In this document: piece by piece, positions 1 through 42,644 of the stretch
How the letters are laid out: each line of letters starts with the position of its first letter
Numbering within the stretch: the stretch's first letter is position 1
IMG/VR virus record: IMGVR_UViG_3300015373_000006
Coordinates: 1-54,548 of that record
Strand: one strand, 5' to 3'
From: a virus
DNA: 54,548 nt
Translations under genes and position numbers: made by a program
Notes under the pieces: model-generated
What the model was told of the DNA's origin: nothing
Databases searched by the model: none
What the model saw: the letters and a program-made list of their open reading frames with translations, nothing else

Positions 1-35
1 CCGCGCCAAGCGATGCCCCGCCTCGCCCCTCCGAG

Positions 36-440
36 CGCACCATGCCTGCCTAGCCAAACCGAGCCTGAGCCTGGACCCGACGAGCCTAGCCATACCAATC
101 CGCGCCTGCCACGCCCTGCGGAGACGAGCCGATGCCTTGCCGGACGATGCCACTCCACGCCGCGCCAAGACCAGCCTGCCGCGCCGTACCGTGCCCCGCT
201 GTGCCCCGCCGCAGCCATGACGGGCCTCGACAGGCCACGCTGTACCTCGCCCCGTCCGGTCGTGCCTTGCCTAGCCTGCCTAGCCGAGCGCTGCCAAGCC
301 ACGCAGGGCCGAGCGGTGACAAGCCTAGACAAGCCATGCCGACGCGCAACCGAGCCGTGACAAGCGGAACCATGCGATGCCAAGCCTGCCTTGCCTCGCC
401 GGACCGAGCGCCGCCAAGCCGCGCACGGACGCGCCCTGCC
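36..440. repeat. Noncoding tract with strict 5-bp periodicity
   Basis: Cut into pentamers from base 1, this stretch keeps one phase without slipping: from pentamer 8 (36-40) to pentamer 88 (436-440), the fifth base is C in 66 of 81 pentamers by hand count. Typical units are CAAGC, CATGC, CTAGC and CTGCC. The unit sequence varies, so it is a period rather than a simple tandem repeat. The open frames across it are by-products of the composition; none has a ribosome binding site. A shorter tract with the same rule on the other strand lies at 48893-48955. Confidence 0.85.
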
Positions 441-444
441 CACG

Positions 445-479
445 TAAAAATGGGGAGCCGAGCGTCGCACTCGGCTCCC
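445..479 (-). terminator. Intrinsic terminator of the leftward early operon
   Basis: A perfect 10-bp stem (453-462 with 470-479, GGGAGCCGAG/CTCGGCTCCC) with a 7-base loop is followed, on the minus strand, by CATTTTTACG. It lies about 70 bp beyond the stop of the last leftward gene and just inside the edge of the 5-bp periodic tract. Confidence 0.85.
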
Positions 480-550
480 GTTGTCCGGGTTCACCGATCT
501 CACATTGATCGGATCGCCCTCGCCCTGCATCAGCGACGGCAGGGCCGCAC

Positions 551-1012
551 TTACGCTGCCATGCTCGCTGGCAACTCTTTCGCGCATGAGACTCCGTACT
601 CAGCCAGCGTCTCCATCATCTGATCGCAGAACGCGATGGAGCGCTGGATGCCGTTCAGTTGGCCGAGGAGAAGCATCTTGCGGGCCTTCCAATCTTCGAT
701 CCGCATTTCCTCAAACCGTCGCTCTACCCCGTCACCGACTCGGTATTTCTTGCCCCACAGGGAGGTGATACCGCCGACCGCGAGTGCGGTTTCGGTGGCA
801 GTCCGGGGATGCCCCGTGGAGCGGAGAGCTGAAAGAGCCATCGCCTCCCGCGAACGAGTCAGCGCCCGTTGCAGGTGGACAACCTCGTCGGCGACCAGCG
901 GCTCCAACTCGGCCTTCGTGTGCGCCGAGAGGAATTCCCGAGCGATCACCTCAGGCGGGTCGTCAGGATCGGCAGCTAGGACGAACTCGCGTAGTGCTTG
1001 TGCGAGAGTCAC
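551..1012 (-). CDS. Conserved-looking hypothetical protein, 153 aa
   Basis: I do not recognise this family. The protein is mostly helical by composition, with a charged N-terminal half and no signal peptide, membrane segment or cysteine cluster. It starts at GTG (1012-1010), which overlaps the TAG of the upstream gene by one base, so translation is probably coupled. It is the last gene of the leftward operon, before the terminator at 445-479. The upstream partner is the protein with a glycine-rich RAMP-like loop, so the two may act together, but nothing in the sequence shows this directly. Confidence 0.75.
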   Translation of the reverse strand: MTLAQALREFVLAADPDDPPEVIAREFLSAHTKAELEPLVADEVVHLQRALTRSREAMALSALRSTGHPRTATETALAVGGITSLWGKKYRVGDGVERRFEEMRIEDWKARKMLLLGQLNGIQRSIAFCDQMMETLAEYGVSCAKELPASMAA

Positions 1013-1596
1013 TAGCTCGTCACCTTGACCTCGGCCTCAAAGCGCCCGTAGCCGATTGCCCGTCCATCGCCGATCCCGATTGCACGGCCAGCCAGATCGA
1101 CCAGCCGTTCCAACTCGTCGTAGTTGAGGCCCGCATCCTCCAACAGCACGGCCGGGACCTCCAGCGACCACGGCATGAATTGGGGCCGGACGCGCATCAC
1201 GCGCTTGCCGCCGACGCCCACGCTCATGCGCGAGACGTAGCCGTTGCCCGTGGCGAAAATCTCGTCCGGGTCCTTCGGCCCTTCGTAGATCAGGGGCACG
1301 TTGAGGGAGGTCATCACGAGCGACCGCTCGACGTGCTTGCCCAACTTGCTGATCCGGCCCGCTTCGATGATCGACTTGCGGACCTTGGCGGAGGGCTGGA
1401 ACACGCCCGTCTCCTCGTCGTAGTAGAGGCCGCCGTGCCACTCCAAGACCGCCATGCGTGCCAGATCGTCGTCGGTCTTTTTCCGCTTGCTGGTGATCGA
1501 CTTCAGCTCCCGGTTGATCGGGAAGTCGGGATCGACCATGCGCGGGTTGTGCATGAGCAGAGGCGATACGCCCTTTAGTGCGATTGAAACGTCCAA
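1012..1596 (-). CDS. Phage protein with RAMP-like glycine-rich C-terminal loop, 194 aa
   Basis: The start is TTG (1596-1594), 6 nt after GGGAG in a structured leader. The N-terminus has SPLLMHNPRM and a conserved-looking basic stretch (TSKRKKTDDD); the C-terminus has GIGDGRAIGYGRFEAEV. That glycine pattern (GxGxxxGxGxF) resembles the G-loop of RAMP/Cas7-fold RNA-binding proteins. From memory, similar proteins with the same start and end are common in phages and have no fixed function. A nucleic-acid-binding RAMP-like fold is my inference; no catalytic residue is evident. It opens a transcription unit with its own promoter (1632-1647). Confidence 0.7.
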   Translation of the reverse strand: MDVSIALKGVSPLLMHNPRMVDPDFPINRELKSITSKRKKTDDDLARMAVLEWHGGLYYDEETGVFQPSAKVRKSIIEAGRISKLGKHVERSLVMTSLNVPLIYEGPKDPDEIFATGNGYVSRMSVGVGGKRVMRVRPQFMPWSLEVPAVLLEDAGLNYDELERLVDLAGRAIGIGDGRAIGYGRFEAEVKVTS

Positions 1597-1602
1597 ACCT
1601 TG

Positions 1603-1617
1603 CTCCCTTCAGTGGAG
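1603..1617 (-). promoter_or_regulatory. Start-associated RNA hairpin enclosing the Shine-Dalgarno
   Basis: On the minus strand CTCC-ACTGAAG-GGAG forms a 4-bp stem with the loop ACTGAAG; the GGGAG half is the ribosome binding site for the TTG start at 1596. It is one of six structured copies in the window with a constant ACTGAAGG core. Confidence 0.65.
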
Positions 1618-1631
1618 TAGGGATTAGCCCT

Positions 1632-1647
1632 GTTCACTTGCAGTATA
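1632..1647 (-). promoter_or_regulatory. Putative promoter, TATACT-N4-GTGAAC type
   Basis: TATACT (1647-1642) is followed after four bases by GTGAAC (1637-1632) in the 71-bp gap between two genes. The same arrangement occurs at 4778-4793 and 6027-6042. No good -35 box is visible at any of them. Confidence 0.55.
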
Positions 1648-1667
1648 GCAGCTAATGGCATCGCCTC

Positions 1668-1967
1668 CTATTCATGCGTGCTTTCGTCCAGGCTTTCAAG
1701 TGCTGCCCGAACTCGCTTGCGTGCGTTCACGGGGTCTAACTTCGCAGCCTCCCGCAGCGCGTCTATCGCCTGCTGGCGAGCCTCTTGCGATGCGTCTAGA
1801 TAGCCGTTGAGCGCTTCCACGTCGGCTTTCAGGTCGTCCCGTTCCGCCTGCGCCTGCTGTAGCTCGCCCTCCAGCCGTTCGATCTGAGTCGTCAGCCAAG
1901 CAATGCGCGTGTACGGATCGGCGCGGGTCGGCTCGTCGTTCAGGATCGTGTCGGCGTGGTCGGTCAT
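1668..1967 (-). CDS. Coiled-coil protein, 99 aa
   Basis: Residues from about 25 to 75 form a strong heptad pattern rich in Leu, Gln and Glu, so an extended coiled coil is likely. No other domain is visible. The ATG (1967-1965) overlaps the stop of the upstream gene in ATGA. A paralogue lies at 17295-17582: both carry an (Q/R)QAIDALRE segment and share 25 identical bases (1749-1773 and 17382-17406), which suggests duplication or recombination within the phage. Confidence 0.75.
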   Translation of the reverse strand: MTDHADTILNDEPTRADPYTRIAWLTTQIERLEGELQQAQAERDDLKADVEALNGYLDASQEARQQAIDALREAAKLDPVNARKRVRAALESLDESTHE

Positions 1968-2635
1968 TGCGCCTCCGCCACGAGCGTTATGTCGATCAGG
2001 TCGGCGGCGTCCACGACAACCTCCTGCTCCGCGCGATCATCGAAGTAACCGAGGACCTTGCCAGCGGGGACGTAGGCTCGCCAGATCGACGGCACCCCAT
2101 CCTCGTCGTAGAGGCCGAGGAACATACCGCGCAGCGACTTCGTGGCCGATGCGAAGAACACGGCTTGGTCGTAGTCGAGCGTCCAAGAGCCGACGCCCTC
2201 GTCCGGCGTCTCGCCGTTGTTGCCCCGAAAAATAGTCACCATCCCAGAAGGCAACGGACGCGGATGGTCCTCGTCCAGCGTCTCCACGTAGGCAACGCGC
2301 TTAATGAGGTCGTGCATCCCGGCACGCAGCACCGGATCGCCGGACCAGGCTTCGGTCACGCTCCACCATTTCTCTACCAGCCGCCGCGCCTCGCCGTCGC
2401 ACACATCGGCGCAGCAGGCGATCAGCGGCAGGGCGCGTTGCTCCGAGCCGTGCATCACCAGCACGCGGTCGTAATCGCCCTCCTCCATCGCCTCGCGGAT
2501 CACGTCGTCCTTTCTAGCCAGCGAGTCGAGCGCCCTTTGCCACATGGGGCGGTCGGCCTCAGGCATCGCGTCGATCTGCTCCTGCGTCAGCATCGGCTCA
2601 CGGAGAGCCTGCACTAGCTCGTCCTTCTCGGTCAT
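1964..2635 (-). CDS. Putative mono-ADP-ribosyltransferase-like protein, 223 aa
   Basis: The C-terminal half carries the R-S-E signature of ADP-ribosyltransferases in order: Arg137 in a FRG context, Ser150 in SWTLDYDQAVFFA, and E203-x-E205 in EQEVVVD. The strands around them (WRAYVP, KVLGYFDDR) fit the NAD-binding core. The ExE motif points to arginine as acceptor. The N-terminal 120 residues are helical and of unknown role. The ATG start follows GAGGGAG. Phage ARTs such as those of T4 modify host RNA polymerase or translation factors; a similar host-takeover role is inference. The gene sits inside an operon of small early genes with 4-bp overlaps on both sides. Confidence 0.65.
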   Translation of the reverse strand: MTEKDELVQALREPMLTQEQIDAMPEADRPMWQRALDSLARKDDVIREAMEEGDYDRVLVMHGSEQRALPLIACCADVCDGEARRLVEKWWSVTEAWSGDPVLRAGMHDLIKRVAYVETLDEDHPRPLPSGMVTIFRGNNGETPDEGVGSWTLDYDQAVFFASATKSLRGMFLGLYDEDGVPSIWRAYVPAGKVLGYFDDRAEQEVVVDAADLIDITLVAEAQ

Positions 2636-2808
2636 GGTCGCTCCCTCAATCTGTTTTCCAGCCGGATCAGCTCGCGCTGCTCGTGTCGGATGATCGCAGC
2701 GACTCGTTCGGCTTCCACGCACTCGTCGCAGAGGTCGCCGGGTTTGGCGAGCGCGTCAGGCTCGCCCGTCGGCAGGGTGATGATCGCGTTGCAGGCGTCG
2801 CAGCGCAT
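2632..2808 (-). CDS. Small zinc-ribbon protein, 58 aa
   Basis: The protein begins MRCDACNA and has a second pair in CDECVEAE, so two CxxC knuckles about 25 residues apart can bind one zinc ion; a basic helix rich in Arg follows. This is a common layout in actinophage early genes, where such proteins are thought to bind nucleic acid. The start overlaps the upstream stop in TGATG and its stop overlaps the next start in ATGA, which supports its reality despite the small size. Confidence 0.8.
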   Translation of the reverse strand: MRCDACNAIITLPTGEPDALAKPGDLCDECVEAERVAAIIRHEQRELIRLENRLRERP

Positions 2809-3323
2809 CAGAACTCCGGTGGCTGGAAGCCGAGTTTCTTGCGATGCTCGCCGAGCGTTTGCGACACGGCCTCAGCCCACGCGCGGTCCGGGGATTGCCC
2901 AACGGCCAGCCCCATGCACAACTCGTCCACGAGGTCGATGAGCGAGCCGAGTGCTTGCCTCATTGTCTCTGAGGCGTCAGCGTGGAGCATCCCGGCGCTG
3001 GAAATCAGGTCCACCTTCTCGGCTAGGTCGAGTTGCCCGTCGAGGGCGGAGCCGAGCGCTTCGGCACGCTCCCTCTGTAAGTCTCGGTCCTCGCGCAGCG
3101 CGATCACCTCAGCGATTAGGTCGAGCCGTCGTTGCCGACGCTCCTCGGGAGTGTGTGGCCCGAGCATTTCGCGCAGCCACTTCGGTACGTCGTCGTTGCC
3201 CGCATCCTCGCGCAGCACGCGAGCGAGGTGTTCCAGGCGGTCGGTGTCGCAATACTCGCCCTCATCGACGCCGCGTAGCTGGTCGAGATAGTCGGCTGCT
3301 TCCTCGCGTTCTTCGGGTGTCAT
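2808..3323 (-). CDS. Hypothetical helical protein, 171 aa
   Basis: A wholly helical, charged protein with no cysteine cluster or membrane segment; the family is not recognised. I chose the ATG at 3323, 5 nt after GGAG and overlapping the upstream stop in ATGA, over a GTG two codons earlier. It may be an adaptor or structural early protein, but there is no direct evidence of function. Confidence 0.75.
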   Translation of the reverse strand: MTPEEREEAADYLDQLRGVDEGEYCDTDRLEHLARVLREDAGNDDVPKWLREMLGPHTPEERRQRRLDLIAEVIALREDRDLQRERAEALGSALDGQLDLAEKVDLISSAGMLHADASETMRQALGSLIDLVDELCMGLAVGQSPDRAWAEAVSQTLGEHRKKLGFQPPEF

Positions 3324-3520
3324 TCCCACTCCAAACTCAGGCGTAGGGTTCGGGCGATGACGAGCGCGTCGCTGGAACGCAACCAGCCGAGCGCGGCCTC
3401 GCTCCCATCCGGGTAGATCAGCCTCACGGGGCCGATCACTTCGCCGTCCACTTCATCCTCGTCTTTCATTGCGATGCGAACGGGCGTCGGGGTGACGATT
3501 GTGTAGGGCCGCCCGATCAT
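3320..3520 (-). CDS. Hypothetical protein, 66 aa
   Basis: A small, beta-rich protein (IGRPYTIVTP, GPVRLIYPDGSEAALGWL) without recognisable domain. The ATG overlaps the preceding stop by four bases, as throughout this operon. Function unknown. Confidence 0.65.
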   Translation of the reverse strand: MIGRPYTIVTPTPVRIAMKDEDEVDGEVIGPVRLIYPDGSEAALGWLRSSDALVIARTLRLSLEWE

Positions 3521-3621
3521 ACGAACAGTCCGATCAGGTTCGGAATGTGGCCCGTGAACATGAAGTCCAGCGCAAAAAATCCGAGTACCCAGAGCAGCGA
3601 ATGTTCGATGCGCTTGCTCAT
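3517..3621 (-). CDS. Single-pass membrane peptide, 34 aa
   Basis: MSKRIEHS is followed by one hydrophobic segment (LLWVLGFFALDFMFTG) and a short tail, so an inner-membrane peptide with a cytoplasmic N-terminus is likely. The ATG follows GGAGGGG by six bases and overlaps the upstream stop in ATGA. It is the first of several tiny membrane peptides in the early operon; the role is unknown. Confidence 0.7.
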   Translation of the reverse strand: MSKRIEHSLLWVLGFFALDFMFTGHIPNLIGLFV

Positions 3622-3800
3622 CGCATACCCCTCCAATTCCGGTACGTCTGCCGACCACGGAGCCAGCAGGCGAGCCGCCAGCGCAAAAGTGCGCGGCGGT
3701 TCAGAGTCGTCGTGTCGAGGTGGAGTGGACAGTCCTGCGCGTACCACGCCTTCGTCACGGCCTCGGGGTGAATCAGCCGTCCGACCTTCGCCCGGATCAT
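3618..3800 (-). CDS. Hypothetical basic protein, 60 aa
   Basis: A small, Arg- and Trp-rich protein with one domain-like stretch (EAVTKAWYAQDCPLHLD). Its N-terminal half resembles nothing I know; the C-terminal basic tail could bind nucleic acid or membranes. The gene is held between ATGA overlaps on both sides, which is the main support. Confidence 0.65.
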   Translation of the reverse strand: MIRAKVGRLIHPEAVTKAWYAQDCPLHLDTTTLNRRALLRWRLACWLRGRQTYRNWRGMR

Positions 3801-3925
3801 GCGATCACCTGCGCGATCACCAACGCGAGCCAGGAAAAGAGGTAGTAGGCCAGAGCTACGAGCAGGGCTACCTGCAACGGGATGAGGACGTACAAGTGCA
3901 GGTTGTTCCAGCGTTGCGGCGTCAT
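3797..3925 (-). CDS. Membrane peptide, 42 aa
   Basis: After MTPQRWNNLH, almost the entire peptide is hydrophobic (YVLIPLQVALLVALAYYLF, then WLALVIAQVIA), enough for one long or two short membrane segments. The start overlaps the upstream stop in ATGA. Function unknown. Confidence 0.65.
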   Translation of the reverse strand: MTPQRWNNLHLYVLIPLQVALLVALAYYLFSWLALVIAQVIA

Positions 3926-4137
3926 TCCTCGTCCCACCTCTCCCCCGCGTACAGCGGGTCGAAATCGGCAGGAGGGATCGGCGAGTCCGGGTAGCGCTCG
4001 TTGATTCGCTCCTGCTCGTCCAGGCGCTCGCCCCAATGCTTGTCGCAGCGAGGGAACGCCCTGCCCGTGGGCGAGAGCGGGAGACGGTATTGCACCGCCC
4101 CCTCGCAGTCGCCCTTGCGACGATCCAAGCACTCCAT
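3922..4137 (-). CDS. Conserved-type actinophage protein with Cys/His residues, 71 aa
   Basis: The sequence MECLDRRKGDCEGAVQYR with PLSPTGRAFPRCDKHW holds three cysteines and one histidine that could form a zinc site; an acidic tail with PPADFDPLYAGERWDEE follows. I recall similar short proteins in many actinophage early regions, all of unknown function. The start overlaps the upstream stop in TGATG. Confidence 0.75.
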   Translation of the reverse strand: MECLDRRKGDCEGAVQYRLPLSPTGRAFPRCDKHWGERLDEQERINERYPDSPIPPADFDPLYAGERWDEE

Positions 4138-4526
4138 CAGATCGTCCAATCCTCGGGCAGCGTCTCGGGCACCTTGAAGCCCACGTCGTCCGGGTTCGGC
4201 ATTTCCAATGCCGCCACCGTTTTGTCGAGGTCCACCAGCTCCGTGACCATCGCGGCCTTCGCTTCCCAGGGCAGGCATTTGGTAACGGTGCCCATGATCG
4301 TCTCCTGGTCAGCCTCGGGGTCAATCTCCTGCGCCGCGTTCAGGCAGGCCATACCGATACCGAACATGATGCCGCGAGCCGACGTGCGGTAGGTGTTGGC
4401 CTCGTCGTCCCAGAGGAGGATGCCTGCCTCCTCCGACTCGCGGAGTCGCTGGCGGGTGTATTCGGGATCGAAAACACCAGCGCCGGGGAGGTCCTCGTCA
4501 GGAATGTCGTTCTCGTGCGTCGTCAT
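4137..4526 (-). CDS. Hypothetical protein, 129 aa
   Basis: Acidic N-terminus (MTTHENDIPDEDLPGAG) then a mainly helical body; family not recognised. The ATG at 4526 lies 6 nt after GGGAG of a structured leader (4532-4546). A longer reading frame upstream has no ribosome binding site. It heads a run of overlapping genes. Confidence 0.75.
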   Translation of the reverse strand: MTTHENDIPDEDLPGAGVFDPEYTRQRLRESEEAGILLWDDEANTYRTSARGIMFGIGMACLNAAQEIDPEADQETIMGTVTKCLPWEAKAAMVTELVDLDKTVAALEMPNPDDVGFKVPETLPEDWTI

Positions 4527-4531
4527 GCTTG

Positions 4532-4546
4532 CTCCCTTCAGCGGAG
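4532..4546 (-). promoter_or_regulatory. Start-associated RNA hairpin (copy 2)
   Basis: CTCC-GCTGAAG-GGAG on the minus strand, a 4-bp stem with the Shine-Dalgarno in its 3' arm. It begins exactly at the stop codon of the upstream gene. Confidence 0.6.
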
Positions 4547-4756
4547 TTAGTGCGACAGCCAGCCCGGAAGCTCCGGGGGCTGCTCTACGTCGATCACGGG
4601 CGCGAACAACACGCCCTCGTCCGTCAAGCGACACTCGTACTGCTGGTCGCGCGGCAGCAGCCGGGCGATGCGTGCCGGGACGGTGAACGTGAACCGATCA
4701 GGCTCGCCATCCTTGGCCCGGCTAGAGCGTGCCGTGCGGAGTTTGAGTAGTGCCAT
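4547..4756 (-). CDS. AbrB/SpoVT-like small DNA-binding protein, 69 aa
   Basis: The core FTFTVPARIARLLPRDQQYECRLTDEGVLFAPV has the swapped-hairpin pattern of AbrB-type proteins: a strand ending in (V/I)P, a short helix, then strands closing with EGVLFAP. Such proteins bind DNA as dimers and often act as antitoxins or transition regulators. No toxin gene is recognisable next to it. The ATG at 4756 follows AGAGGAG by four bases. A longer in-frame extension has no support. Confidence 0.6.
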   Translation of the reverse strand: MALLKLRTARSSRAKDGEPDRFTFTVPARIARLLPRDQQYECRLTDEGVLFAPVIDVEQPPELPGWLSH

Positions 4757-4889
4757 GTGACTCCTCTGCTTCCTCGTGTTCACCCTCAGTATAACCCAAG
4801 GGTTCCTCATCCGGGTAGCCAGCCTCCAGAAACTCGCGCTGCCACTTGGGGAGGTCGAGTACGTCGATCAATCGCGTGCGCCGCTCCAA
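4722..4889 (-). CDS. Possible small acidic protein, 55 aa
   Basis: A TTG start (4889) is preceded by GGGAGG nine bases upstream and opens a frame with KWQREFLEAGYPDEEPLG and an acidic tail. It overlaps the AbrB-like gene by 35 bp, and the putative promoter of that gene lies inside it, so one of the two readings may be wrong. Function unknown. Confidence 0.45.
   Translation of the reverse strand: MERRTRLIDVLDLPKWQREFLEAGYPDEEPLGYTEGEHEEAEESHGTTQTPHGTL
4778..4793 (-). promoter_or_regulatory. Putative promoter, TATACT-N4-GTGAAC type (copy 2)
   Basis: TATACT at 4793-4788 and GTGAAC at 4783-4778, upstream of the AbrB-like gene, with the same spacing as at 1632-1647. Confidence 0.5.
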
Positions 4890-4904
4890 AAAAAATCGCC
4901 TCCC

Positions 4905-5135
4905 TCAGATGGGCAGAACCTTGCCGATCTTGTCCAGGGCTGCCAGCGCGTGCCGCTCGCATAGCCGGACCGACCGGGCCGTGTTCTGGCCCTGCTTCGG
5001 CTTTCCTCCGTGCCCCACACGGGACACGATCACCTGCACCCGCACGGGCGCTTCCTTGCCGCACATTGCACAGCGGGCGCGAGACTTCCTGCGTCCCTCA
5101 CCTGTGGCGAATACGGCGTCGAGTTCTTCGGTCAT
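4905..5135 (-). CDS. Small zinc-finger protein, 76 aa
   Basis: One CxxC knuckle (CAMCGKEA) and a later C-x3-H (CERHAL) can form a zinc site. Between them lies a basic loop (GHGGKPKQG). The ATG follows GGGAGG. It is likely a nucleic-acid-binding early protein, but the partner is unknown. Confidence 0.7.
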   Translation of the reverse strand: MTEELDAVFATGEGRRKSRARCAMCGKEAPVRVQVIVSRVGHGGKPKQGQNTARSVRLCERHALAALDKIGKVLPI

Positions 5136-5157
5136 TGATCCTCCCGTGGAGGGTGGT

Positions 5158-5316
5158 CTAAGAGGTCGGGCTGCTGGCGCTGTTCAGGTCGAAGATCACG
5201 CAGTCGAGCGCGTCGCTTACGTGAGCAGCCCAATCCTTCGCCTCTTGATCGTTGGCGAACGGGCCGAACAGCTCGGGGGCGTCGTAGCCGCCCATGAGTA
5301 GGACGTACCAAGTCAC
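5158..5316 (-). CDS. Small protein, 52 aa
   Basis: A GTG start after GGGAGG opens MTWYVLLMGGYDAPELFGPF followed by NDQEAKDWAAHV and a short tail. The pattern of a strand, a helix and an FGPF turn looks like a real folded domain. It is the first gene after a structured leader (5323-5339). Function unknown. Confidence 0.65.
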   Translation of the reverse strand: MTWYVLLMGGYDAPELFGPFANDQEAKDWAAHVSDALDCVIFDLNSASSPTS

Positions 5317-5322
5317 GATTCC

Positions 5323-5339
5323 CACCTCCCTTCAGTGTG
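5323..5339 (-). promoter_or_regulatory. Start-associated RNA hairpin (copy 3)
   Basis: CAC-ACTGAAGGGAG-GTG on the minus strand: the conserved ACTGAAGGGAG sits in a loop closed by a different 3-bp stem from copies 1 and 2. Confidence 0.5.
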
Positions 5340-5379
5340 ACGTTCTAGCCCCGGTCGTTGTCGGGCCGGAGCTACAGCG

Positions 5380-5691
5380 TCAGTCGTCTAGTTCGATGAC
5401 GTTTGTGCCAACCTTGATTGCTTCGATTGCTGCCTCTGACATATGGAAGTAGCGCTTGCCGTTCGGAGCCTGCCTCAGTACGCCGAGCGGGAACGACGGA
5501 CGCGCCTCGTTACTACCACCCGTCAGACGCACATAGAAGCAGTCTTGCTCGCTGCCAGCATCGTCCGGGTGTCCGTTCACCTGGACGCCAGCAGTCCAGC
5601 CCTGAGCCTGCGCCCGGATACCTGAGTTCGCATTGCCGAGCCGGGACACGGGCTGCCGCCCACCTTCAACTACGCCCATGAAGCGTGCCAT
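5380..5691 (-). CDS. Conserved-type actinophage protein, 103 aa
   Basis: The protein opens MARFMGVVEGGRQPVSRLG and continues with GWTAGVQVNGHPDD, a beta-rich pattern I recall from small early proteins of many actinophages, where no function is established. There are no membrane segments or zinc ligands. The ATG follows GGAGGAGGTGACTC. It is the first leftward gene after the foreign island; two 25-bp direct repeats lie just upstream (5712-5764). Confidence 0.75.
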   Translation of the reverse strand: MARFMGVVEGGRQPVSRLGNANSGIRAQAQGWTAGVQVNGHPDDAGSEQDCFYVRLTGGSNEARPSFPLGVLRQAPNGKRYFHMSEAAIEAIKVGTNVIELDD

Positions 5692-5711
5692 GAGTCACCT
5701 CCTCCATTTCG

Positions 5712-5764
5712 GCCCAAAAAAATGTGGCCCTTCAGAATCGCCCAAAAAAATGTGGCCCCTCAGA
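5712..5764 (-). repeat. Two 25-bp direct repeats upstream of the leftward gene
   Basis: Copies at 5712-5736 and 5740-5764 share GCCCA7TGTGGCCC then TCAGA, 28 bp apart, differing at one base. On the minus strand each reads TCTGARGGGCCACA followed by seven T, related to the start-associated leader core. They may be operators or duplicated leaders. Confidence 0.7.
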
Positions 5765-5790
5765 TGGGTCCCAAACCGTGGCCGACCCTG

Positions 5791-5865
5791 CCCTCCGTTG
5801 GCCCGGCCAATTGTTGGTTGGGTCAATCGTTGGCGGGGCCAATCGTTGGCCCGGCCAATAATGGA
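5791..5865. repeat. Five 16-bp iterons at the left edge of the island
   Basis: Units begin at 5791, 5807, 5823, 5839 and 5855, each an 11-bp near-palindrome plus a 5-bp G/C spacer: CCCTCCGTTGG, CCAATTGTTGG, TCAATCGTTGG, CCAATCGTTGG, CCAATAATGGA. The register is exact. A matching array closes the island at 10214-10272. Confidence 0.85.
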
Positions 5866-6409
5866 ATGGGGGTCGCTGTCTGCCATAAGGGGGGCTGGCT
5901 GGCTGCCCTGCCGGGGGCCGCTGCCCTGGGGCTGCCGGGGCCGCTGCCGCTGTCGCTGCCAGCGGGGGGCCGGGGCTGTCTGGGGGCTGCCGGGTCCGGG
6001 GCCGATTGCCTGCCGGGGCTGCCTGCCTTCACCCCTAGTATAGCTGAGACTTTGCAAAGCGGGGCTAGCAGCCGGGGCCGGGGGCAATCGTCCCCAGGGC
6101 CGGGCTTAGTTGCCAGCGGGGGCAATTAGCTAACCGGGCTAACGAGCTGTCAGGGCTGGCGACTAGTTGCCAGGGCTGGCGAATTTCGGCCCCTCAGCCG
6201 GGCGATACTTGCGGGGGCAAGCGAAATTCCCGCAAATAGCGTGTTTACCACGGAGGCAACACTTCGCTATGCGATGGGAAAGCCCCTGGACGAAGGGGGC
6301 CATTTGCAGGGCTTTTCTGTCTGCCCTTCCCTTGTGTTATCCCAGGGGCTTCCCCACACAATCGCTGCCCCTTCCTGGGGGCAGCACAGCGGCAGGGAGG
6401 CCGCAAGCA
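5866..6409. other. GC-rich noncoding left spacer of the island
   Basis: No gene is supported in these 544 bases. The sequence repeats short G/C words such as GGCCGGGG and TTGCCAG. A hairpin at 6279-6316 (AAAGCCC pairing with GGGCTTT, then TTTTC on the + strand) lies in the leader of the ATPase gene and could be an attenuator. A leftward TATACT motif lies at 6037-6042. Confidence 0.6.
6027..6042 (-). promoter_or_regulatory. Putative leftward promoter, TATACT-N4-GTGAA type (copy 3)
   Basis: TATACT (6042-6037) then GTGAAG (6032-6027) on the minus strand, inside the island spacer and directed at the gene at 5691. Spacing matches the other two copies; no -35 box is evident. Confidence 0.4.
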
Positions 6410-7255
6410 ATGGCGACAGCGACAGGTAAGGCAAAGGCAGCGGGACCCCGGACCCGGGGCAGACTGCCGAAGGCAGCGACCCTGCTAGCCGATGATGGAG
6501 GCTGGGCAATGGCAGGGGCAGTTATCGGCCGGGTCCCGAACGTACTGCTTTACGGTCCCCCAGGGACAGGGAAAAGCACACTTGCTGCAAAGCATGGCGG
6601 AGTAAATGCCTTCCGCGTTTACTTGAACGAGGAAATGCCTGCTACGGAATTGCGGGGAGGACCCCTCCCGGCTAATGGGCAATGGGAATGGCAGCACGGT
6701 CCCGGGGTCCTGGCATGGCTGGCAGGGCAGCGGCTCATTCTGGACGAAGTAGATAAGGCAAGCGCAGACACATTTACCTTCCTGCTTGCCTTGCTGGACA
6801 ATCCTGAGACTGCCGGGGTCCACCTTCCTAATGGCGAATACGTATCGCCCCGGGCTGGCTTCCATTCCGTAGCCACTAGCAACTGTCTTGACCCGAACGA
6901 ACTGCCCCCTGCATTGCAGGACCGCTTTTCCGTTTGCGTCAATATCACCCGGCCCCATCCGGCAGCTATCGCTTCGCTACCTAAGGACCTCAGGGAGGCA
7001 GCTAAGACTTCGTGTTCGCTGCCGGAGGACCGCCGGATTTCTATGCGGGGCTGGCAGACATTCGCCAGCCTTCGGGACCTTTTCGGCCCCGAAGCGGCAG
7101 CGAAGGCAGTATGGCGGGACCGGGGGCCAGCGGTCCTTTCGTCCCTGGCGATTGCATCGGCCCCGGGGCTATGTGAAGGGCCATGCGTTTACTGCGGGAC
7201 CCTGACGGACCATTCCGATAGCCGGGGCCGCTTCGTTTGCGGGGGCTGCCGCTAA
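6410..7255 (+). CDS. MoxR-type AAA ATPase with C-terminal zinc ribbon, 281 aa
   Basis: Walker A GPPGTGKS (49-56), Walker B LILDEVD (109-115), a sensor-1-like ATSN (155-158) and an arginine-finger region LQDRF (169-173) identify a MoxR/CobS-like AAA ATPase. The C-terminal 25 residues add two Cys pairs (C259/C262 and C277/C280), a zinc ribbon not usual for the family. The ATG at 6410 follows GGGAGG by nine bases. MoxR ATPases work with VWA proteins, and a VWA protein is encoded two genes downstream with no gap, so the pair probably remodels a target together. Codon use (GAA, GCA, CTA, GTA, GGG) differs from the flanking phage genes. Confidence 0.85.
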   Translation: MATATGKAKAAGPRTRGRLPKAATLLADDGGWAMAGAVIGRVPNVLLYGPPGTGKSTLAAKHGGVNAFRVYLNEEMPATELRGGPLPANGQWEWQHGPGVLAWLAGQRLILDEVDKASADTFTFLLALLDNPETAGVHLPNGEYVSPRAGFHSVATSNCLDPNELPPALQDRFSVCVNITRPHPAAIASLPKDLREAAKTSCSLPEDRRISMRGWQTFASLRDLFGPEAAAKAVWRDRGPAVLSSLAIASAPGLCEGPCVYCGTLTDHSDSRGRFVCGGCR

Positions 7256-7419
7256 TGGCTGCCGCAATCAGACACGCAAAGGTAAAGGGCAGCAAGGGGC
7301 AGCGCGTTCGGACCGCTGCCCCTTGGCTGCCGGAATACGAAAGGGTCCGGCCGGAATATGTATCGCTGGGATATGGCAGGCGGGTCCGGCGGGTCCTTCC
7401 TACAGGGGAAGGGCAGTAG
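7255..7419 (+). CDS. Small basic protein, 54 aa
   Basis: The ATG overlaps the ATPase stop in TAATG, so translation is coupled. The peptide is Arg/Lys-rich (RHAKVKGSKGQRVRTAAPW, then LGYGRRVRRVLP) with no membrane segment or cysteine. It could bind nucleic acid or bridge the ATPase and the VWA protein; neither is shown. Confidence 0.6.
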   Translation: MAAAIRHAKVKGSKGQRVRTAAPWLPEYERVRPEYVSLGYGRRVRRVLPTGEGQ

Positions 7420-7421
7420 AT

Positions 7422-9257
<1,836 letters not shown>

Positions 9258-9266
9258 GAAGGGGCA

Positions 9267-9371
9267 ATGGCAATGCAGACTTATCTAAGCCCGGCAGGAT
9301 TCGCGGTCTTAGTGATTGCGGCCCTGGCAATTCGCATGGCCCTGGCTTCCATCGGAAGGCATAAGGGCTAG
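9267..9371 (+). CDS. Single-pass membrane peptide, 34 aa
   Basis: MAMQTYLSPAG precedes one hydrophobic helix (FAVLVIAALAIRMALA) and a basic tail, so an inner-membrane peptide is likely. AGGAAGGGG precedes the ATG. It lies nine bases after the VWA stop and is the last gene of the island operon; it might anchor the ATPase/VWA pair at the membrane. Confidence 0.6.
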   Translation: MAMQTYLSPAGFAVLVIAALAIRMALASIGRHKG

Positions 9372-10213
9372 CCCCCGGGCAGACATAGCAAGCAGGGCCA
9401 GCGGCCCCGGGTGAAGCCAGCCCGGGGCCGCAATCGTTCCGGGGCCATGTAAGCCCCGCTGCCGACAGCGGCAGGGGTCCGAAGGCAAGCAGCCGGGGCC
9501 GGGGGCCGGGGGCAGCCAGCGGCCCCCAGGTAGCCAGCGGGGGGCAGCCGGACCGGGGCCAGCCCGGGGGCTATTCCGGCAGCGCTGCCAGCGGCCCCCA
9601 GGGGACCGGGGCCGGGGGGCGAAGGCTGGCAGCCGGGCCAGCGAGGGAAGCCCGGCAGCGGGGCAGCCAGCGGCAGCGAGGGGCAGCCAGCCCGGGCCAG
9701 CCATGCCAGCAAGGGCCGGGCCAGCCAGCGGCCCTGTAAGCCCCTCTAAGCCCCTGCCCTGCCGGGCCATGCTGGGGGCCGGGCGATGGGGACAGCGGCC
9801 CCTCAGGGCTTAGAGGGGCAGCCCGGGGGCCATTGCAGCCGGGGCCGCTTGCAGCCGGGGGCGATGGGGGGCTGCCAGCAAGGGCCGCCAGCGGGGGCCG
9901 CCAGCCCCCGGGCCGCAGCTCGGTCCCAGCTCGCCAGCGGGCCAGCGGGGGAAATTGAAAAGCCCCCATTAGCAGGGGCTTTATCGACATCCGGCAGCCT
10001 ATTCCGGCCCCTGCCGGGGCTGCCGACATCCGGGGCCGGGGGCGAAATAGCCGGGCGAGATCGTACTAAAGCCCTGCATATCGGCAGTTTTCAATTATGC
10101 GGGGCTGCCTCGTGTTCCAGGTAGGGCCGGGCCATCGAAGGGGCCGGGGCCATCGCCGACACGAGGGGCAGCCGGGGCCGGGCGATAGGTAGCCGGGCTA
10201 GATATGGAATGGG
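9372..10213. other. GC-rich noncoding right spacer of the island
   Basis: About 840 bases without a supportable gene. Long open frames on both strands reflect the lack of A/T-rich stops. Structure visible: a perfect 9-bp inverted repeat (9403-9411 with 9421-9429) right after the last gene, a 12-bp palindrome GGCAGCGCTGCC (9578-9589), many CCGGGGCC and CAGCGG words, and a hairpin at 9959-9982. Confidence 0.6.
9959..9982 (+). terminator. Possible terminator in the island spacer
   Basis: AAAGCCCC pairs with GGGGCTTT around an 8-base loop, giving a U-rich 3' edge (TTTAT) on the + strand. It would end a rightward transcript from the island; the U-run is short. Confidence 0.5.
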
Positions 10214-10272
10214 CCGACGATAGGCCGGGCCGATCATTGGCCGCGCCAATCGTTGGAGGGGCCAATCATTGT
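10214..10272. repeat. Four 16-bp iterons at the right edge of the island
   Basis: Units start at 10214, 10230, 10246 and 10262: CCGACGATAGG, CCGATCATTGG, CCAATCGTTGG and CCAATCATTGT, separated by 5-bp G/C spacers. The unit length, spacer length and consensus match the left array (5791-5865). Confidence 0.85.
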
Positions 10273-10436
10273 TTTTAGGTCCTATCTACGAGCGGGACCC
10301 CGCGCAGAGTCTTATTTCTCTCCCCATTTTCGTTTTGCCCTGCAAATGGCCGTTTTCGACCCGGGCAACTGCTTGGTTGAGCCAAATACGCCGTGATTCG
10401 GCCTGAAATACCCCGATGGCCCTGGCGAACAGAACC

Positions 10437-10457
10437 CCCCGCAAATCGGGGCTTTTT
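10437..10457 (+). terminator. Intrinsic terminator, right of the island
   Basis: CCCCG-CAAAT-CGGGG followed by CTTTTT on the + strand, beyond the right iterons. It overlaps the stop of the convergent membrane-peptide gene by two bases. Bases 10273-10436 hold nothing else that I can identify. Confidence 0.75.
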
Positions 10458-10545
10458 AGCGCCTCAGAAGCAGCAATGCGATGACCATTATCAGGCCCAC
10501 GAGGACGAGAATCTGGAACGTCGTCTCGTTGAGTGCGGCGATCAT
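10456..10545 (-). CDS. Single-pass membrane peptide, 29 aa
   Basis: MIAALNETTF then one hydrophobic helix (QILVLVGLIMVIALLLL) ending RR. The ATG overlaps the upstream stop in ATGA and follows AGAGGGGG. It is the last gene of the long leftward operon; role unknown. Confidence 0.65.
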   Translation of the reverse strand: MIAALNETTFQILVLVGLIMVIALLLLRR

Positions 10546-10850
10546 TGGATCAAGCCCCCTCTCAATGCGATAGCGATGAGGTGGTAATCGTCCTTCGCTG
10601 CGAGCAAGGTCCGTGCGCTACGCAGTCGTCGGTAGATGGCATCGACGCTGACGCCAAGAATCTCGGCCGCGCCTTTGTGCCCGAGTCCATGACTCAGCGC
10701 GTTGATCGCCGCGACTTCCTTGTCGCTCACGATCTCGCGGGGCGTAGGCCCACCGTTCCTGTATCCCTGGCCGTGGAGTTGGGCCTGAATCCTGGTCAGC
10801 GCCGCTTCCCTTCGGTCTGCGTCCGGCCACATCTGCTCCAGCTCGTCCAT
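10542..10850 (-). CDS. LuxR/sigma-4-type helix-turn-helix protein, 102 aa
   Basis: The C-terminal half (INALSHGLGHKGAAEILGVS and on to a long second helix) is a clear GerE/sigma-4-like helix-turn-helix, followed by HLIAIALRGGLI, an ending I recall from small phage regulators. The N-terminus is a short helical region. It probably binds DNA and regulates phage transcription. The ATG at 10850 overlaps the upstream stop in TGATG. Confidence 0.75.
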   Translation of the reverse strand: MDELEQMWPDADRREAALTRIQAQLHGQGYRNGGPTPREIVSDKEVAAINALSHGLGHKGAAEILGVSVDAIYRRLRSARTLLAAKDDYHLIAIALRGGLIQ

Positions 10851-11041
10851 CACTTCTCACCCGATGGTCGGAAGCCGATCTCCACTTTGCGCTTCGCCTT
10901 GGCTGCGGCCTCCGGCAAGAACAAGCCCGACCCCTCATCGAACGCGAAGTCCTTGCTCTCCGGTTCGGGCTTCACGGTCGATTCGCCATAGCCCAACCGC
11001 TGCTTCGGCGCTGGCGCTCTGCCCTTTTGGTGTCTCACCAT
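10850..11041 (-). CDS. Hypothetical protein, 63 aa
   Basis: A basic N-terminus (MVRHQKGRAPAPKQR) and a mixed C-terminus with FDEGSGLFLPEAAAKAK; no known domain. Short overlaps with both neighbours support it. A GTG one codon downstream of the chosen ATG is an alternative start. Confidence 0.6.
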   Translation of the reverse strand: MVRHQKGRAPAPKQRLGYGESTVKPEPESKDFAFDEGSGLFLPEAAAKAKRKVEIGFRPSGEK

Positions 11042-11277
11042 TCGCGGCTCGTCGCGTGCTGCTCAGGTTGCGTGCCGAAGATCACGCCGACAACGCCGCG
11101 CCCGATGGCCGGGATGCCGCGCAAGGTCCGACTGTCCGAGGCCGCCATGTTGAACGTCTGTCGCTCGACCCGCAGCTCGGCGAGGTCGCCTGCCTGCTCG
11201 CGGGCTAGCCGTTCCAGCAGCTTCGCGTTCTCAACGTTCGCGCCGTAGTTTGCGAACCCACGAGGGAATGTCGGCAA
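11035..11277 (-). CDS. Hypothetical protein, 80 aa
   Basis: TTG start (11277) nine bases after AGGAGG. The middle is a helix rich in Leu and Arg (KLLERLAREQAGDLAELRVE), the end beta-like with many glycines. It overlaps the upstream gene by 47 bp. No family recognised. Confidence 0.55.
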   Translation of the reverse strand: MPTFPRGFANYGANVENAKLLERLAREQAGDLAELRVERQTFNMAASDSRTLRGIPAIGRGVVGVIFGTQPEQHATSREW

Positions 11278-11545
11278 GGTCGGCCACCTCCTCCCGCGTC
11301 TTGACTTCGATTTCGATGTCGGCGGGCTTGACGATGACGTGGTTGCGGTCGAGGTGCGGCATCGCCTGATGGATCATTTCAAAGACCCTGTACGCCTGTT
11401 CGCGGCTGACGTACCGTGGCTCGTGGATGGTGACGACCACGTAGTCGTCCTTCTGGATGGTCATTTTCTGCAACGTCGTGCGGAGGCCAGCGATGGTCAG
11501 CTCCGGCCTGATCTTCACGGTGATCGTGTCCGGGGTCTTAGGCAT
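11231..11545 (-). CDS. Hypothetical alpha/beta protein, 104 aa
   Basis: Begins MPKTPDTITVKIRPELTIAG and alternates strands and helices (DDYVVVTIHEP, YRVFEMIHQAMPHLDRN), ending basic. No catalytic motif is visible and the family is not recognised. The ATG at 11545 lies inside the upstream gene's last codons; GGAAGG is the nearest ribosome-binding-like sequence. Confidence 0.65.
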   Translation of the reverse strand: MPKTPDTITVKIRPELTIAGLRTTLQKMTIQKDDYVVVTIHEPRYVSREQAYRVFEMIHQAMPHLDRNHVIVKPADIEIEVKTREEVADLADIPSWVRKLRRER

Positions 11546-19765: not shown

Positions 19766-19914
19766 TTCACGACCTCGTTGAGAAGTAGGAGGGCGTCGAT
19801 GGCGAGCAGCGTGAAGGCCGCGACGACCATCGGCCAGGGGAAGTGGACGAAGAACGAGGACACGACGAGCATGACTAGCGCCCCACGCCAGAACCAGGCC
19901 GTCTTGCTGTTCAT
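19762..19914 (-). CDS. Membrane protein, 50 aa
   Basis: Two hydrophobic segments (GALVMLVVSSFFVHF and VVAAFTLLAIDALLLL) separated by a Pro-Trp turn: a two-pass membrane protein. ATGA overlap with the upstream methyltransferase gene. Role unknown. Confidence 0.65.
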   Translation of the reverse strand: MNSKTAWFWRGALVMLVVSSFFVHFPWPMVVAAFTLLAIDALLLLNEVVK

Positions 19915-20810
19915 CCCAACACCGACAACTGCTGTGTGCGCCGTGCAGCGATCTCGCACGACTCCTGACTGATTTCGATGCCGATGCACTTGCGGCCGAG
20001 CCGTCGCGCCACGAGCGCGGTCGTGCCCGACCCGATGAAGGGATCGAAAATAGTTCCATTTTCGGGGCAGCCTGCAAGCACGCATGGCTCAATGAGCGCC
20101 TGCGGGAACGTCGCGTAGTGCGGATCGGGATTACTCTCGGTCGGGACGGTCCAGACGGAACGCTTGTTCTTGCCCTGGCCCTCCGTGAGCGTGATCGCGC
20201 CCGTGCCCTGGCCGCCGCCGTTCGTGTCCACGCCCTCGCGCACCGTCCGGCGCTTCACCAGCTCGCGCTTCTCACCCGGCTTGATCCAGCCCATTGACCC
20301 CTTTCCCGTCGTCTGATCGCCCCACCGCTCCCACAGCGCCTCCTCGCGGATCGCGTCGGCGTCGAAGTAATAGACCTCCGACTTGGCGAAGTGGAACAGG
20401 TACTCGTGAGCTACGGTGCAGCGGTCGGTCGCGCTCGACGGCATCGGGTTCGGCTTGTGCCAGATCACGTCGCAGCGCAGCCACCAGCCAGCAGCCTTCA
20501 GCGCGAACGCGACCCTCCACGGGATACCGACCAATTCCTTGTTCGCGTAGGTGTCACCGAGGTTCAGCCAGAGCGTGCCGTCATCACGCAGCACTCGGCG
20601 CACCTCAGCAAATACTTCGACCAGCGCCTCCACGTATTTCTGCGGCGTCTCCTCGCGCCCGAGCTGCTTGTCGTCTCGGTAATCGCGCAGGTTCCAATAC
20701 GGCGGCGACGTGATGCAGCAATTCACGCTCTGACTCGGCAGTTGTCTCGTGGCCGTGAGAGCGTCGCCGAGCCAGAGCGTGAAGTCGGGATCAGAAAGGA
20801 ACGGTGTCAC
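19911..20810 (-). CDS. Site-specific DNA methyltransferase, 299 aa
   Basis: Motif IV is TSPPYW (34-39), in the beta-class order with the AdoMet-binding DPFIGSGTT near residues 256-264. SPPY is found in N4-cytosine and some N6-adenine methylases. The length and a central variable region for target recognition are typical. No restriction enzyme is nearby, so it is an orphan methylase, probably protecting phage DNA. The GTG start overlaps the upstream stop. The recognition sequence cannot be read from this gene. Confidence 0.9.
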   Translation of the reverse strand: MTPFLSDPDFTLWLGDALTATRQLPSQSVNCCITSPPYWNLRDYRDDKQLGREETPQKYVEALVEVFAEVRRVLRDDGTLWLNLGDTYANKELVGIPWRVAFALKAAGWWLRCDVIWHKPNPMPSSATDRCTVAHEYLFHFAKSEVYYFDADAIREEALWERWGDQTTGKGSMGWIKPGEKRELVKRRTVREGVDTNGGGQGTGAITLTEGQGKNKRSVWTVPTESNPDPHYATFPQALIEPCVLAGCPENGTIFDPFIGSGTTALVARRLGRKCIGIEISQESCEIAARRTQQLSVLG

Positions 20811-39746: not shown

Positions 39747-40372
39747 GCGATCCCCCATTCCATCTTCAGCGGAGCCAGCTTTACGGCATGGCGCTCCCAG
39801 GAATTGCTCGTGGCGAAGGCGGGTGATTCAACGCCGCCAGCACCGATCAGACCGAACGGTGACTGCGCCTGCTGCCAATGCTCCACGGCGCGTTCCAGAC
39901 AGACTTCGACTGCGAGCGCAGGCGGATTGGCGTAGGGGGCGTCGGAGTTGCCGACCTCATGGTCGATTTCCCGTGACGCTGCGATCAGGACGCGCTCCAA
40001 GGCCGCATGACGAGCCGTGGCATCGACCTTCACCAGCCGAGCCAACTCATCGACGCTGGCGTAGGGCGCGGTGAGGAATTCGCTGTTCTGCGCCGGGATG
40101 GACGGAAGGCTGACGTTGCTGCTGCCGTCGGCGAAGATGACGCGATACCAAAGGTCGGCCGTGCTGCTGGCAAGCGACGTGGTGAAGCTCCTGCTCTGAG
40201 GGTCGGCCGGGTCCACATCCGTCGGCGAGAGCGCGATCACGTCGATCTGCGTCCAGATCGTGTCGTCGGAGAGCGTGTCGGTGTCGCTCTCCTCAATCCG
40301 TACCTCGCTCCAGGGGATCGAATCGAAGCGAGCCGGAGGCGTGTAGTCCTCAAAGGAAATGATCTGCGTCAT
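39743..40372 (-). CDS. Head-tail connector with N-terminal FN3-like domain, 209 aa
   Basis: The C-terminal half (PYASVDELARLVKVDATARHA and on) is the helical gp6-like connector signature. The first 105 residues look like a fibronectin-III-type beta domain (WTQIDVIALSPTDVDPADPQ, DLWYRVIFADGSSNVSLPS), which is unusual in connectors and may sit at the neck surface. Confidence 0.65.
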   Translation of the reverse strand: MTQIISFEDYTPPARFDSIPWSEVRIEESDTDTLSDDTIWTQIDVIALSPTDVDPADPQSRSFTTSLASSTADLWYRVIFADGSSNVSLPSIPAQNSEFLTAPYASVDELARLVKVDATARHAALERVLIAASREIDHEVGNSDAPYANPPALAVEVCLERAVEHWQQAQSPFGLIGAGGVESPAFATSNSWERHAVKLAPLKMEWGIA

Positions 40373-42252: not shown

Positions 42253-42644
42253 TAGGCGGCTGTGGGGGTGATGGCGACGGTCAGCGAGCCGGATGCGATG
42301 GTGAAGGTGTCGCCGACGGCGACCGTCTTGGAGGCTGCGAGATCGTCCGAGCCGAGGAACGTCCCTGCCGATGATGCGGTCCAGAACGAGACGTGCGAGT
42401 ACGTCTCGGCCGTGCTTACGTTCGTCCAAACGAGATCAGCGTTGGTCGAGATCGAACCTCCCGAGGCTGTGCCGAAGGCCGCCTGCTGTCTCGTCGTATT
42501 GCCTGCGGCGGCCGTAGTGCCAGCAGAGCCGGGATCGGCCGTGTGCAGCTTGACCCAGAAGGCTGCATTGCCGCCGTAGGACGTGCCCTTGCAGTAGGCC
42601 GTAATCATCGAGTTAGCTTCGGTGTCCTTGATTCCAACTGCCAT
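42252..42644 (-). CDS. Fibre-like structural protein, 130 aa
   Basis: The segment VKLHTADPGSAGTTAAAGN is a signature I recall from short tail-fibre-like or head-decoration proteins (LHTGDP family); the remainder is beta-rich. It sits after the capsid gene, so head decoration is possible. A similar type lies at 52080-52469. Confidence 0.6.
   Translation of the reverse strand: MAVGIKDTEANSMITAYCKGTSYGGNAAFWVKLHTADPGSAGTTAAAGNTTRQQAAFGTASGGSISTNADLVWTNVSTAETYSHVSFWTASSAGTFLGSDDLAASKTVAVGDTFTIASGSLTVAITPTAA

What the first reader, a model, noticed from the sequence alone, without database searches (positions are those of the whole stretch)
5770..10273. Compositionally foreign island shared by genes and spacers
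Genes and noncoding DNA alike use words such as GGGCC, CAGCGG and GCGAA, and the genes prefer codons (GTA, CTA, GCA, GGG, GAA) that are rarer nearby. GATC, common elsewhere, looks scarce. The island is the only + strand block in the left half. It looks like a recently acquired element or one under a special constraint.
Basis: partly seen in the sequence, partly recalled or inferred. Interest (0 to 1): 0.7.

Follow-up and report, generated by a model that had tools for sequence, protein, structure and literature searches.

The report
Foreign chaperone cassette inside phage genome
A 4.3-kb block in the middle of a phage genome, carrying a two-protein ATP-driven remodelling machine, is written in a very different DNA dialect from its surroundings, and the restriction sites it keeps and lacks suggest that it was acquired from another, still unidentified, phage lineage.

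Summary
The island is real and sharply bounded: the composition switch lies at about 5,849-10,230 in a 54.5-kb phage contig. Dinucleotide distance to the rest is 0.316 (null mean 0.046, maximum 0.087); the AC/GT odds ratio is 0.50 against 0.96. A model trained on its genes alone recognises its spacers, so the dialect is shared.

It encodes an operon: a MoxR/NorQ-type AAA+ ATPase, a small ORF, a 611-aa protein with an HExxH motif and a C-terminal vWA (MIDAS) domain, and a small membrane ORF. The gene pair is common in phages (vWA relatives in at least 336 contigs; ATPase upstream in 80 of 100 loci). The 11 cassettes compared have ordinary composition, so the dialect does not come with these genes.

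The phage has lost most palindromic hexamers (165 seen, 1,027 expected). The island shares this (GGGCCC 0 of 14, GCCGGC 0 of 12) except for CCCGGG: 19 in the island, 1 in the other 50 kb (p=2e-10). It alone avoids TCGA, GATC, GCGC and CGCG. Best reading: acquisition from another phage lineage under overlapping but different restriction pressure. Both junctions fall in a 16-bp repeat array, suggesting insertion there. The donor was not found.

The parts
5849..10230 (.). Compositional island (best-scoring segment); the inserted cassette itself is probably about 5,871-10,203
   Evidence: Order-3 Markov maximal segment; edge scores per 60 bp
5796..5859 (+). Left part of a 16-bp repeat array, four units (consensus CGTTGGCCGGGCCAAT)
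   Evidence: composition is phage-like
10219..10266 (+). Right part of the same array, three units, same direction
   Evidence: composition is phage-like
5861..5870 (+). Left copy of a 10-bp direct repeat ATGGAATGGG; possible insertion junction
   Evidence: chance 3-9% for such a match; inference
10204..10213 (+). Right copy of the 10-bp direct repeat ATGGAATGGG; possible insertion junction
   Evidence: inference
5871..6409 (.). Left spacer, island dialect, no coding signal
6410..7255 (+). MoxR/NorQ-type AAA+ ATPase (AAA_5), 281 aa, GGGAGG ribosome-binding-like sequence upstream, two CxxC pairs at the C-terminus
   Evidence: Pfam AAA_5 E=4e-17; model pLDDT 88; closest folds NorQ and CbbQ
7255..7419 (+). 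Small ORF, 54 aa, overlapping the ATPase stop codon
   Evidence: Translation; no relatives found by tblastn in the fetched loci
7422..9257 (+). 611-aa protein: N-terminal region with HEMGH (residues 74-78) and EDSRI, Gly/Pro-rich linker (about 205-357), C-terminal vWA domain with MIDAS DCSGSM
   Evidence: Alignments; model; phrog_33218 E=6e-19; NorD VWA domain Z 9.7
9267..9371 (+). Small ORF, 34 aa, hydrophobic, membrane-type
   Evidence: Translation; positive coding score
9373..10203 (.). Right spacer, island dialect at its most extreme (AC/GT odds ratio 0.29), no coding signal
10437..10457 (+). Terminator-like hairpin with T-run beyond the island, facing the operon
   Evidence: Consensus scan, not above shuffles in number

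Best explanation
A 4.3-kb cassette from another phage lineage was inserted into this phage's leftward-transcribed early region, inside a 16-bp repeat array. It carries a MoxR/NorQ-type AAA+ ATPase and its vWA partner, which has an HExxH metallopeptidase-like motif. Shown: the compositional boundary, the operon, the conserved pairing in other phages, and the differing restriction-site fingerprint. Inferred: that it was acquired; that the donor was another phage (same gene pair in hundreds of phage contigs, same near-complete hexamer avoidance); that it entered the array. Probable function, by analogy with NorQ-NorD and CbbQ-CbbO: a hexameric ATPase ring docks on the vWA domain through its metal site and uses ATP to remodel a target protein or complex, the N-terminal HExxH region possibly cutting or holding it. 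The target is unknown; other cassettes often sit beside recombination genes, so a target there or in virion assembly is plausible.
For: Sharp switch and delta* 0.316 against a null maximum of 0.087. Eleven relatives of the cassette are not islands in their genomes (delta* 0.02-0.20). CCCGGG 19 in the island versus 1 elsewhere, Fisher p 2e-10. TCGA, GCGC and CGCG, and less strongly GATC, avoided only in the island. Shared avoidance of other hexamers, 4 of 77 expected, fits a phage donor in a similar restriction environment. Pairing ATPase-vWA in 80 of 100 loci. NorQ and NorD VWA are the top structural matches for the two proteins. Repeat units at both junctions, in phase once the two 10-bp repeats are merged.
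Against: No donor or close relative was found. No recombinase in the island. The in-phase junction was noticed after the fact and is only suggestive. Restriction as the cause of the avoidance was not tested. The HExxH fold is not confirmed (model of that region moderate, whole-model Foldseek without significant match).
Confidence: 0.72

Rival explanations
1. Old resident DNA under a local constraint: the island has long been part of this phage and a local process (for example a structural or protein-binding requirement) enforces the dialect in genes and spacers.
For: Shares with the phage near-total loss of most hexamers, of TTAA and of ACTGG.
Against: CCCGGG purged in the phage but abundant in the island; 4-bp palindromes avoided only in the island; cassettes elsewhere ordinary; a local constraint would not be expected to switch restriction-site sets.
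Confidence: 0.13
2. A non-autonomous transposon-like unit mobilised in trans, the 16-bp units being its transposase-binding ends.
For: Repeat units at both ends and a 10-bp direct repeat.
Against: The units have phage, not island, composition, run in the same direction at both ends and continue in phase once the insert is removed; no inverted repeat between the ends; no island with such ends in the viral contig scans.
Confidence: 0.06
3. Assembly chimera: DNA of another organism joined into the phage contig.
For: Both junctions lie in repeats; no reads available; no relative with the same arrangement.
Against: The longest exact match between the two edges is 12 bp, too short for usual assembly word lengths (own knowledge); two independent misjoins would be needed; the island shares the phage's TTAA, ACTGG and hexamer avoidance; both flanks have the same fingerprint.
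Confidence: 0.07

Closest known systems
MoxR AAA+ - vWA/metallopeptidase pair of group 2.2 jumbo phages (PMC7824862)
   Same: Adjacent MoxR-type ATPase and vWA protein with an N-terminal metallopeptidase-type region, in a phage
   Different: Found here in a 54.5-kb contig, with a long Gly/Pro-rich linker, and inside a compositionally foreign island; sequence relation to the jumbo-phage pair was not tested
NorQ-NorD and CbbQ-CbbO remodelling systems
   Same: ATPase fold matches NorQ and CbbQ; vWA domain matches the NorD VWA domain
   Different: About 22-25% identity in the ATPase; no NOR or Rubisco target; HExxH region instead of the NorD/CbbO N-terminal parts
Restriction-site avoidance by phages (PMC6286503)
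   Same: Elimination of palindromic Type II sites; the paper reports complete or almost complete elimination in about a tenth of viral genomes
   Different: Here 30 of 43 testable hexamers are absent at once, and an internal island has a different avoidance set
Horizontally acquired compositional islands
   Same: Sharp k-mer boundary, operon on the opposite strand, ordinary relatives elsewhere
   Different: AC/GT odds ratio of 0.50 lies below all the other loci fetched here (whole-locus range 0.79-1.25); donor unknown; no integrase

Membership tests
Phage MoxR-vWA pair (as in PMC7824862) | AAA+ ATPase of the MoxR type | tested here: met
   Pfam AAA_5 E=4e-17; folds NorQ/CbbQ
Phage MoxR-vWA pair (as in PMC7824862) | Adjacent vWA protein with a MIDAS metal site | tested here: met
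   DCSGSM invariant or nearly so in 35 relatives; adjacency in 80 of 100 loci
Phage MoxR-vWA pair (as in PMC7824862) | N-terminal metallopeptidase domain on the vWA protein | tested here: inconclusive
   HEMGH present, with E/D downstream in most HExxH members; no Pfam match; fold not confirmed
Phage MoxR-vWA pair (as in PMC7824862) | Sequence relation to the jumbo-phage pair | not tested
   The paper's named proteins were not fetched
NorQ-NorD / CbbQ-CbbO | Dedicated target (nitric oxide reductase or Rubisco) | not testable with these tools
   No such gene was noticed in the ORFs examined in the window; the target is unknown
Transposon | Transposase or other recombinase gene in the element | tested here: not met
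   Operon holds ATPase, vWA protein and two small ORFs; spacers have no coding signal
Transposon | Terminal inverted repeats | tested here: not met
   No inverted match of 9 bp or more reported between the edge regions
Known anti-phage defence systems (PADLOC) | Match to a defence model over most of the protein | tested here: not met
   Nearly all hits are short P-loop stretches, best E=6e-4; the vWA protein has none

The most novel reading that the evidence does not exclude
The island's dialect is the genome-wide signature of an unknown phage lineage whose whole genome obeys an extreme step rule: G/C runs that begin with G and end with C, GT/AC steps at half to a third of expectation in genes and spacers alike, together with near-total loss of palindromes. 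Such a rule would point to an unusual polymerase, base modification or host defence, and the cassette would be a sample of a genome not yet seen.
Probability: 0.25. Interest if true: 0.75.

Novelty: new variant of a known kind. Interest (0 to 1): 0.5.

Why it matters
The restriction-site fingerprint works as a forensic trace. Because the phage has purged some 30 palindromes, a newly arrived segment shows which host defences its donor did and did not face, even with no relative in the databases. It also places a conserved, uncharacterised phage remodelling machine (hundreds of copies) on a moving segment, and points to a donor with a dinucleotide signature outside the range of all the other loci compared here.

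Tried and rejected
Whole-protein searches of viral contigs with the ATPase, the vWA protein and the primase found nothing, probably because the chosen peptides were variable; a vWA-domain query then found 21 and its alignment at least 336 relatives. Similar-DNA searches in phages and plasmids gave only short chance-like matches, including one to Streptomyces plasmid pSVH1. Repeat-pattern scans found six contigs, none with such an island. MoxR-vWA cassettes as general compositional islands: rejected. G-quadruplexes: few, at most about 2.5 times expectation, in the genes. RNA families and tRNAs: none in Rfam (4,500-11,500) or by ARAGORN. Hidden genes in the spacers: no coding signal. A whole-model Foldseek search of the vWA protein gave no match at E<=0.001; the NorD match came from the second look. 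The phage methyltransferase resembles CcrM and cytosine-N4 enzymes, which does not fix its specificity.

Full report
What was checked. The window is a 54,548-base virus record, GC about 0.63, with phage structural genes on the right and primase, methyltransferase and recombination-type genes on the left, mostly on the - strand. Its terminase is closest, at about 40% identity, to phages of actinobacteria.

The observation. Between about 5,849 and 10,230 the DNA changes dialect while GC content hardly changes. Tetranucleotide distance is 0.59-0.82 against 0.23-0.47 elsewhere. The strand-symmetric AC/GT odds ratio is 0.50 overall and 0.29 in the right spacer, against 0.93-0.96 in the flanks; GA/TC and CG are also low, and GG/CC, AA/TT, AT and TA are high. 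Put simply, G/C runs tend to begin with G and end with C. Genes-only models recognise the spacers and a spacer model recognises the genes, so this is not codon usage alone. The switch is complete within about 60 bp at each edge.

What it encodes. A rightward operon: a 281-aa AAA_5 ATPase with a confident model whose closest solved folds are NorQ and CbbQ; a 54-aa ORF; a 611-aa protein with HEMGH at residues 74-78, a Gly/Pro-rich linker and a C-terminal vWA domain with a DCSGSM metal site, closest on second look to the NorD VWA domain (Z 9.7, rmsd 4.0, 157 residues aligned); and a 34-aa membrane-type ORF. Relatives of the vWA domain occur in at least 336 viral contigs. In 100 loci examined, the ATPase lies upstream in 80, and many of the others are cut off by the contig end. 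Recurrent neighbours include a single-strand annealing protein and an exonuclease; one locus has an SSB gene. A MoxR-vWA pair with a metallopeptidase domain has been described in jumbo phages and proposed to act in virion assembly (PMC7824862).

Why acquired. In 11 relatives the cassette differs from its own flanks by delta* 0.02-0.20; here it is 0.316, against a null maximum of 0.087 within this phage. No other fetched locus approaches this GT/AC depletion, apart from a stretch of L033 at 0.57-0.60 that lacks the other features.

The restriction fingerprint. Outside the island, palindromic hexamers number 165 against 1,027 expected; 30 of 43 with expectation above 5 are absent. Three control phages of similar GC give ratios of 0.61-0.87, against 0.16 here. 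The two flanks agree with each other: palindromes outside the tolerated set number 0 of 98 on the left and 3 of 97 on the right. The island shares most of this: without CCCGGG, 4 of 77; GGGCCC 0 where simulations give 13.7, GCCGGC 0 versus 12.4, TTAA 0 versus 5.5, ACTGG 0 versus 7.2. It differs in two ways. CCCGGG occurs 19 times, against once in the other 50 kb (at 10,360, just outside; Fisher 2e-10). And TCGA (2 versus 15.4), GCGC (8 versus 20.8), CGCG (5 versus 13.9) and, less strongly, GATC (3 versus 9.4) are avoided in the island but little or not at all in the phage. I read this as a donor lineage exposed to an overlapping but different set of restriction enzymes, and an arrival too recent for CCCGGG to have been lost. 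That restriction is the cause of the avoidance is inferred from established knowledge (PMC6286503).

How it may have entered. Both edges lie in 16-bp units (consensus CGTTGGCCGGGCCAAT): four at 5,796-5,859 and three at 10,219-10,266, same direction, with phage-like composition. A 10-bp direct repeat, ATGGAATGGG, sits at each inner edge. Merging the two copies restores one array in 16-bp phase. The phase match has a chance of 1 in 16 and the 10-bp match 3-9%, so this is suggestive, and it was noticed after the fact. No recombinase gene or inverted termini were found.

How it works (inference). The two proteins most resemble NorQ and the VWA domain of NorD, in which a MoxR ring and a vWA partner remodel a target. 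The same division of labour is the best guess here, with the HExxH region as a possible protease or holding domain. The N-terminal fold was not confirmed, and about a third to half of the relatives lack HExxH, so proteolysis cannot be general to the family.

What remains open. The donor, the reason for its extreme step bias, and the target of the ATPase-vWA machine are unknown. A chimera cannot be excluded without reads, but the island's shared avoidance pattern and the short matches at the junctions make it unlikely.

Noticed in passing
window 1-5795 and 10273-54548: Near-total loss of palindromic hexamers in the phage (165 seen, 1,027 expected; 30 of 43 testable ones absent), plus TTAA (1 in 54.5 kb) and ACTGG/CCAGT (2); tolerated ones include AGCGCT, CGGCCG, GCTAGC and GAATTC.
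   Followed up: yes
window 19911-20810 (-): Phage-encoded N6/N4 DNA methyltransferase; its specificity may bear on which palindromes are tolerated.
   Followed up: partly
window 5712-5767 and 4885-4912: A 28-bp direct repeat GCCCAAAAAAATGTGGCCCNTCAGA, twice in tandem just left of the island and a degenerate third copy 0.8 kb away; possible regulatory element of the phage.
   Followed up: no
window 40501-42500: Second-highest tetranucleotide outlier (0.39-0.47), within a repetitive Thr/Ser-rich ORF at 40,369-42,429 on the - strand.
   Followed up: no
L110:3288-3313: Another GC-rich viral contig has two 16-bp units with the core CAATTGTTGG upstream of a leftward gene, suggesting that such arrays may be operators.
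   Followed up: partly
L050 and L103: Two relatives of the cassette lie in contigs that also show strong hexamer avoidance (ratios 0.08 and 0.23).
   Followed up: no
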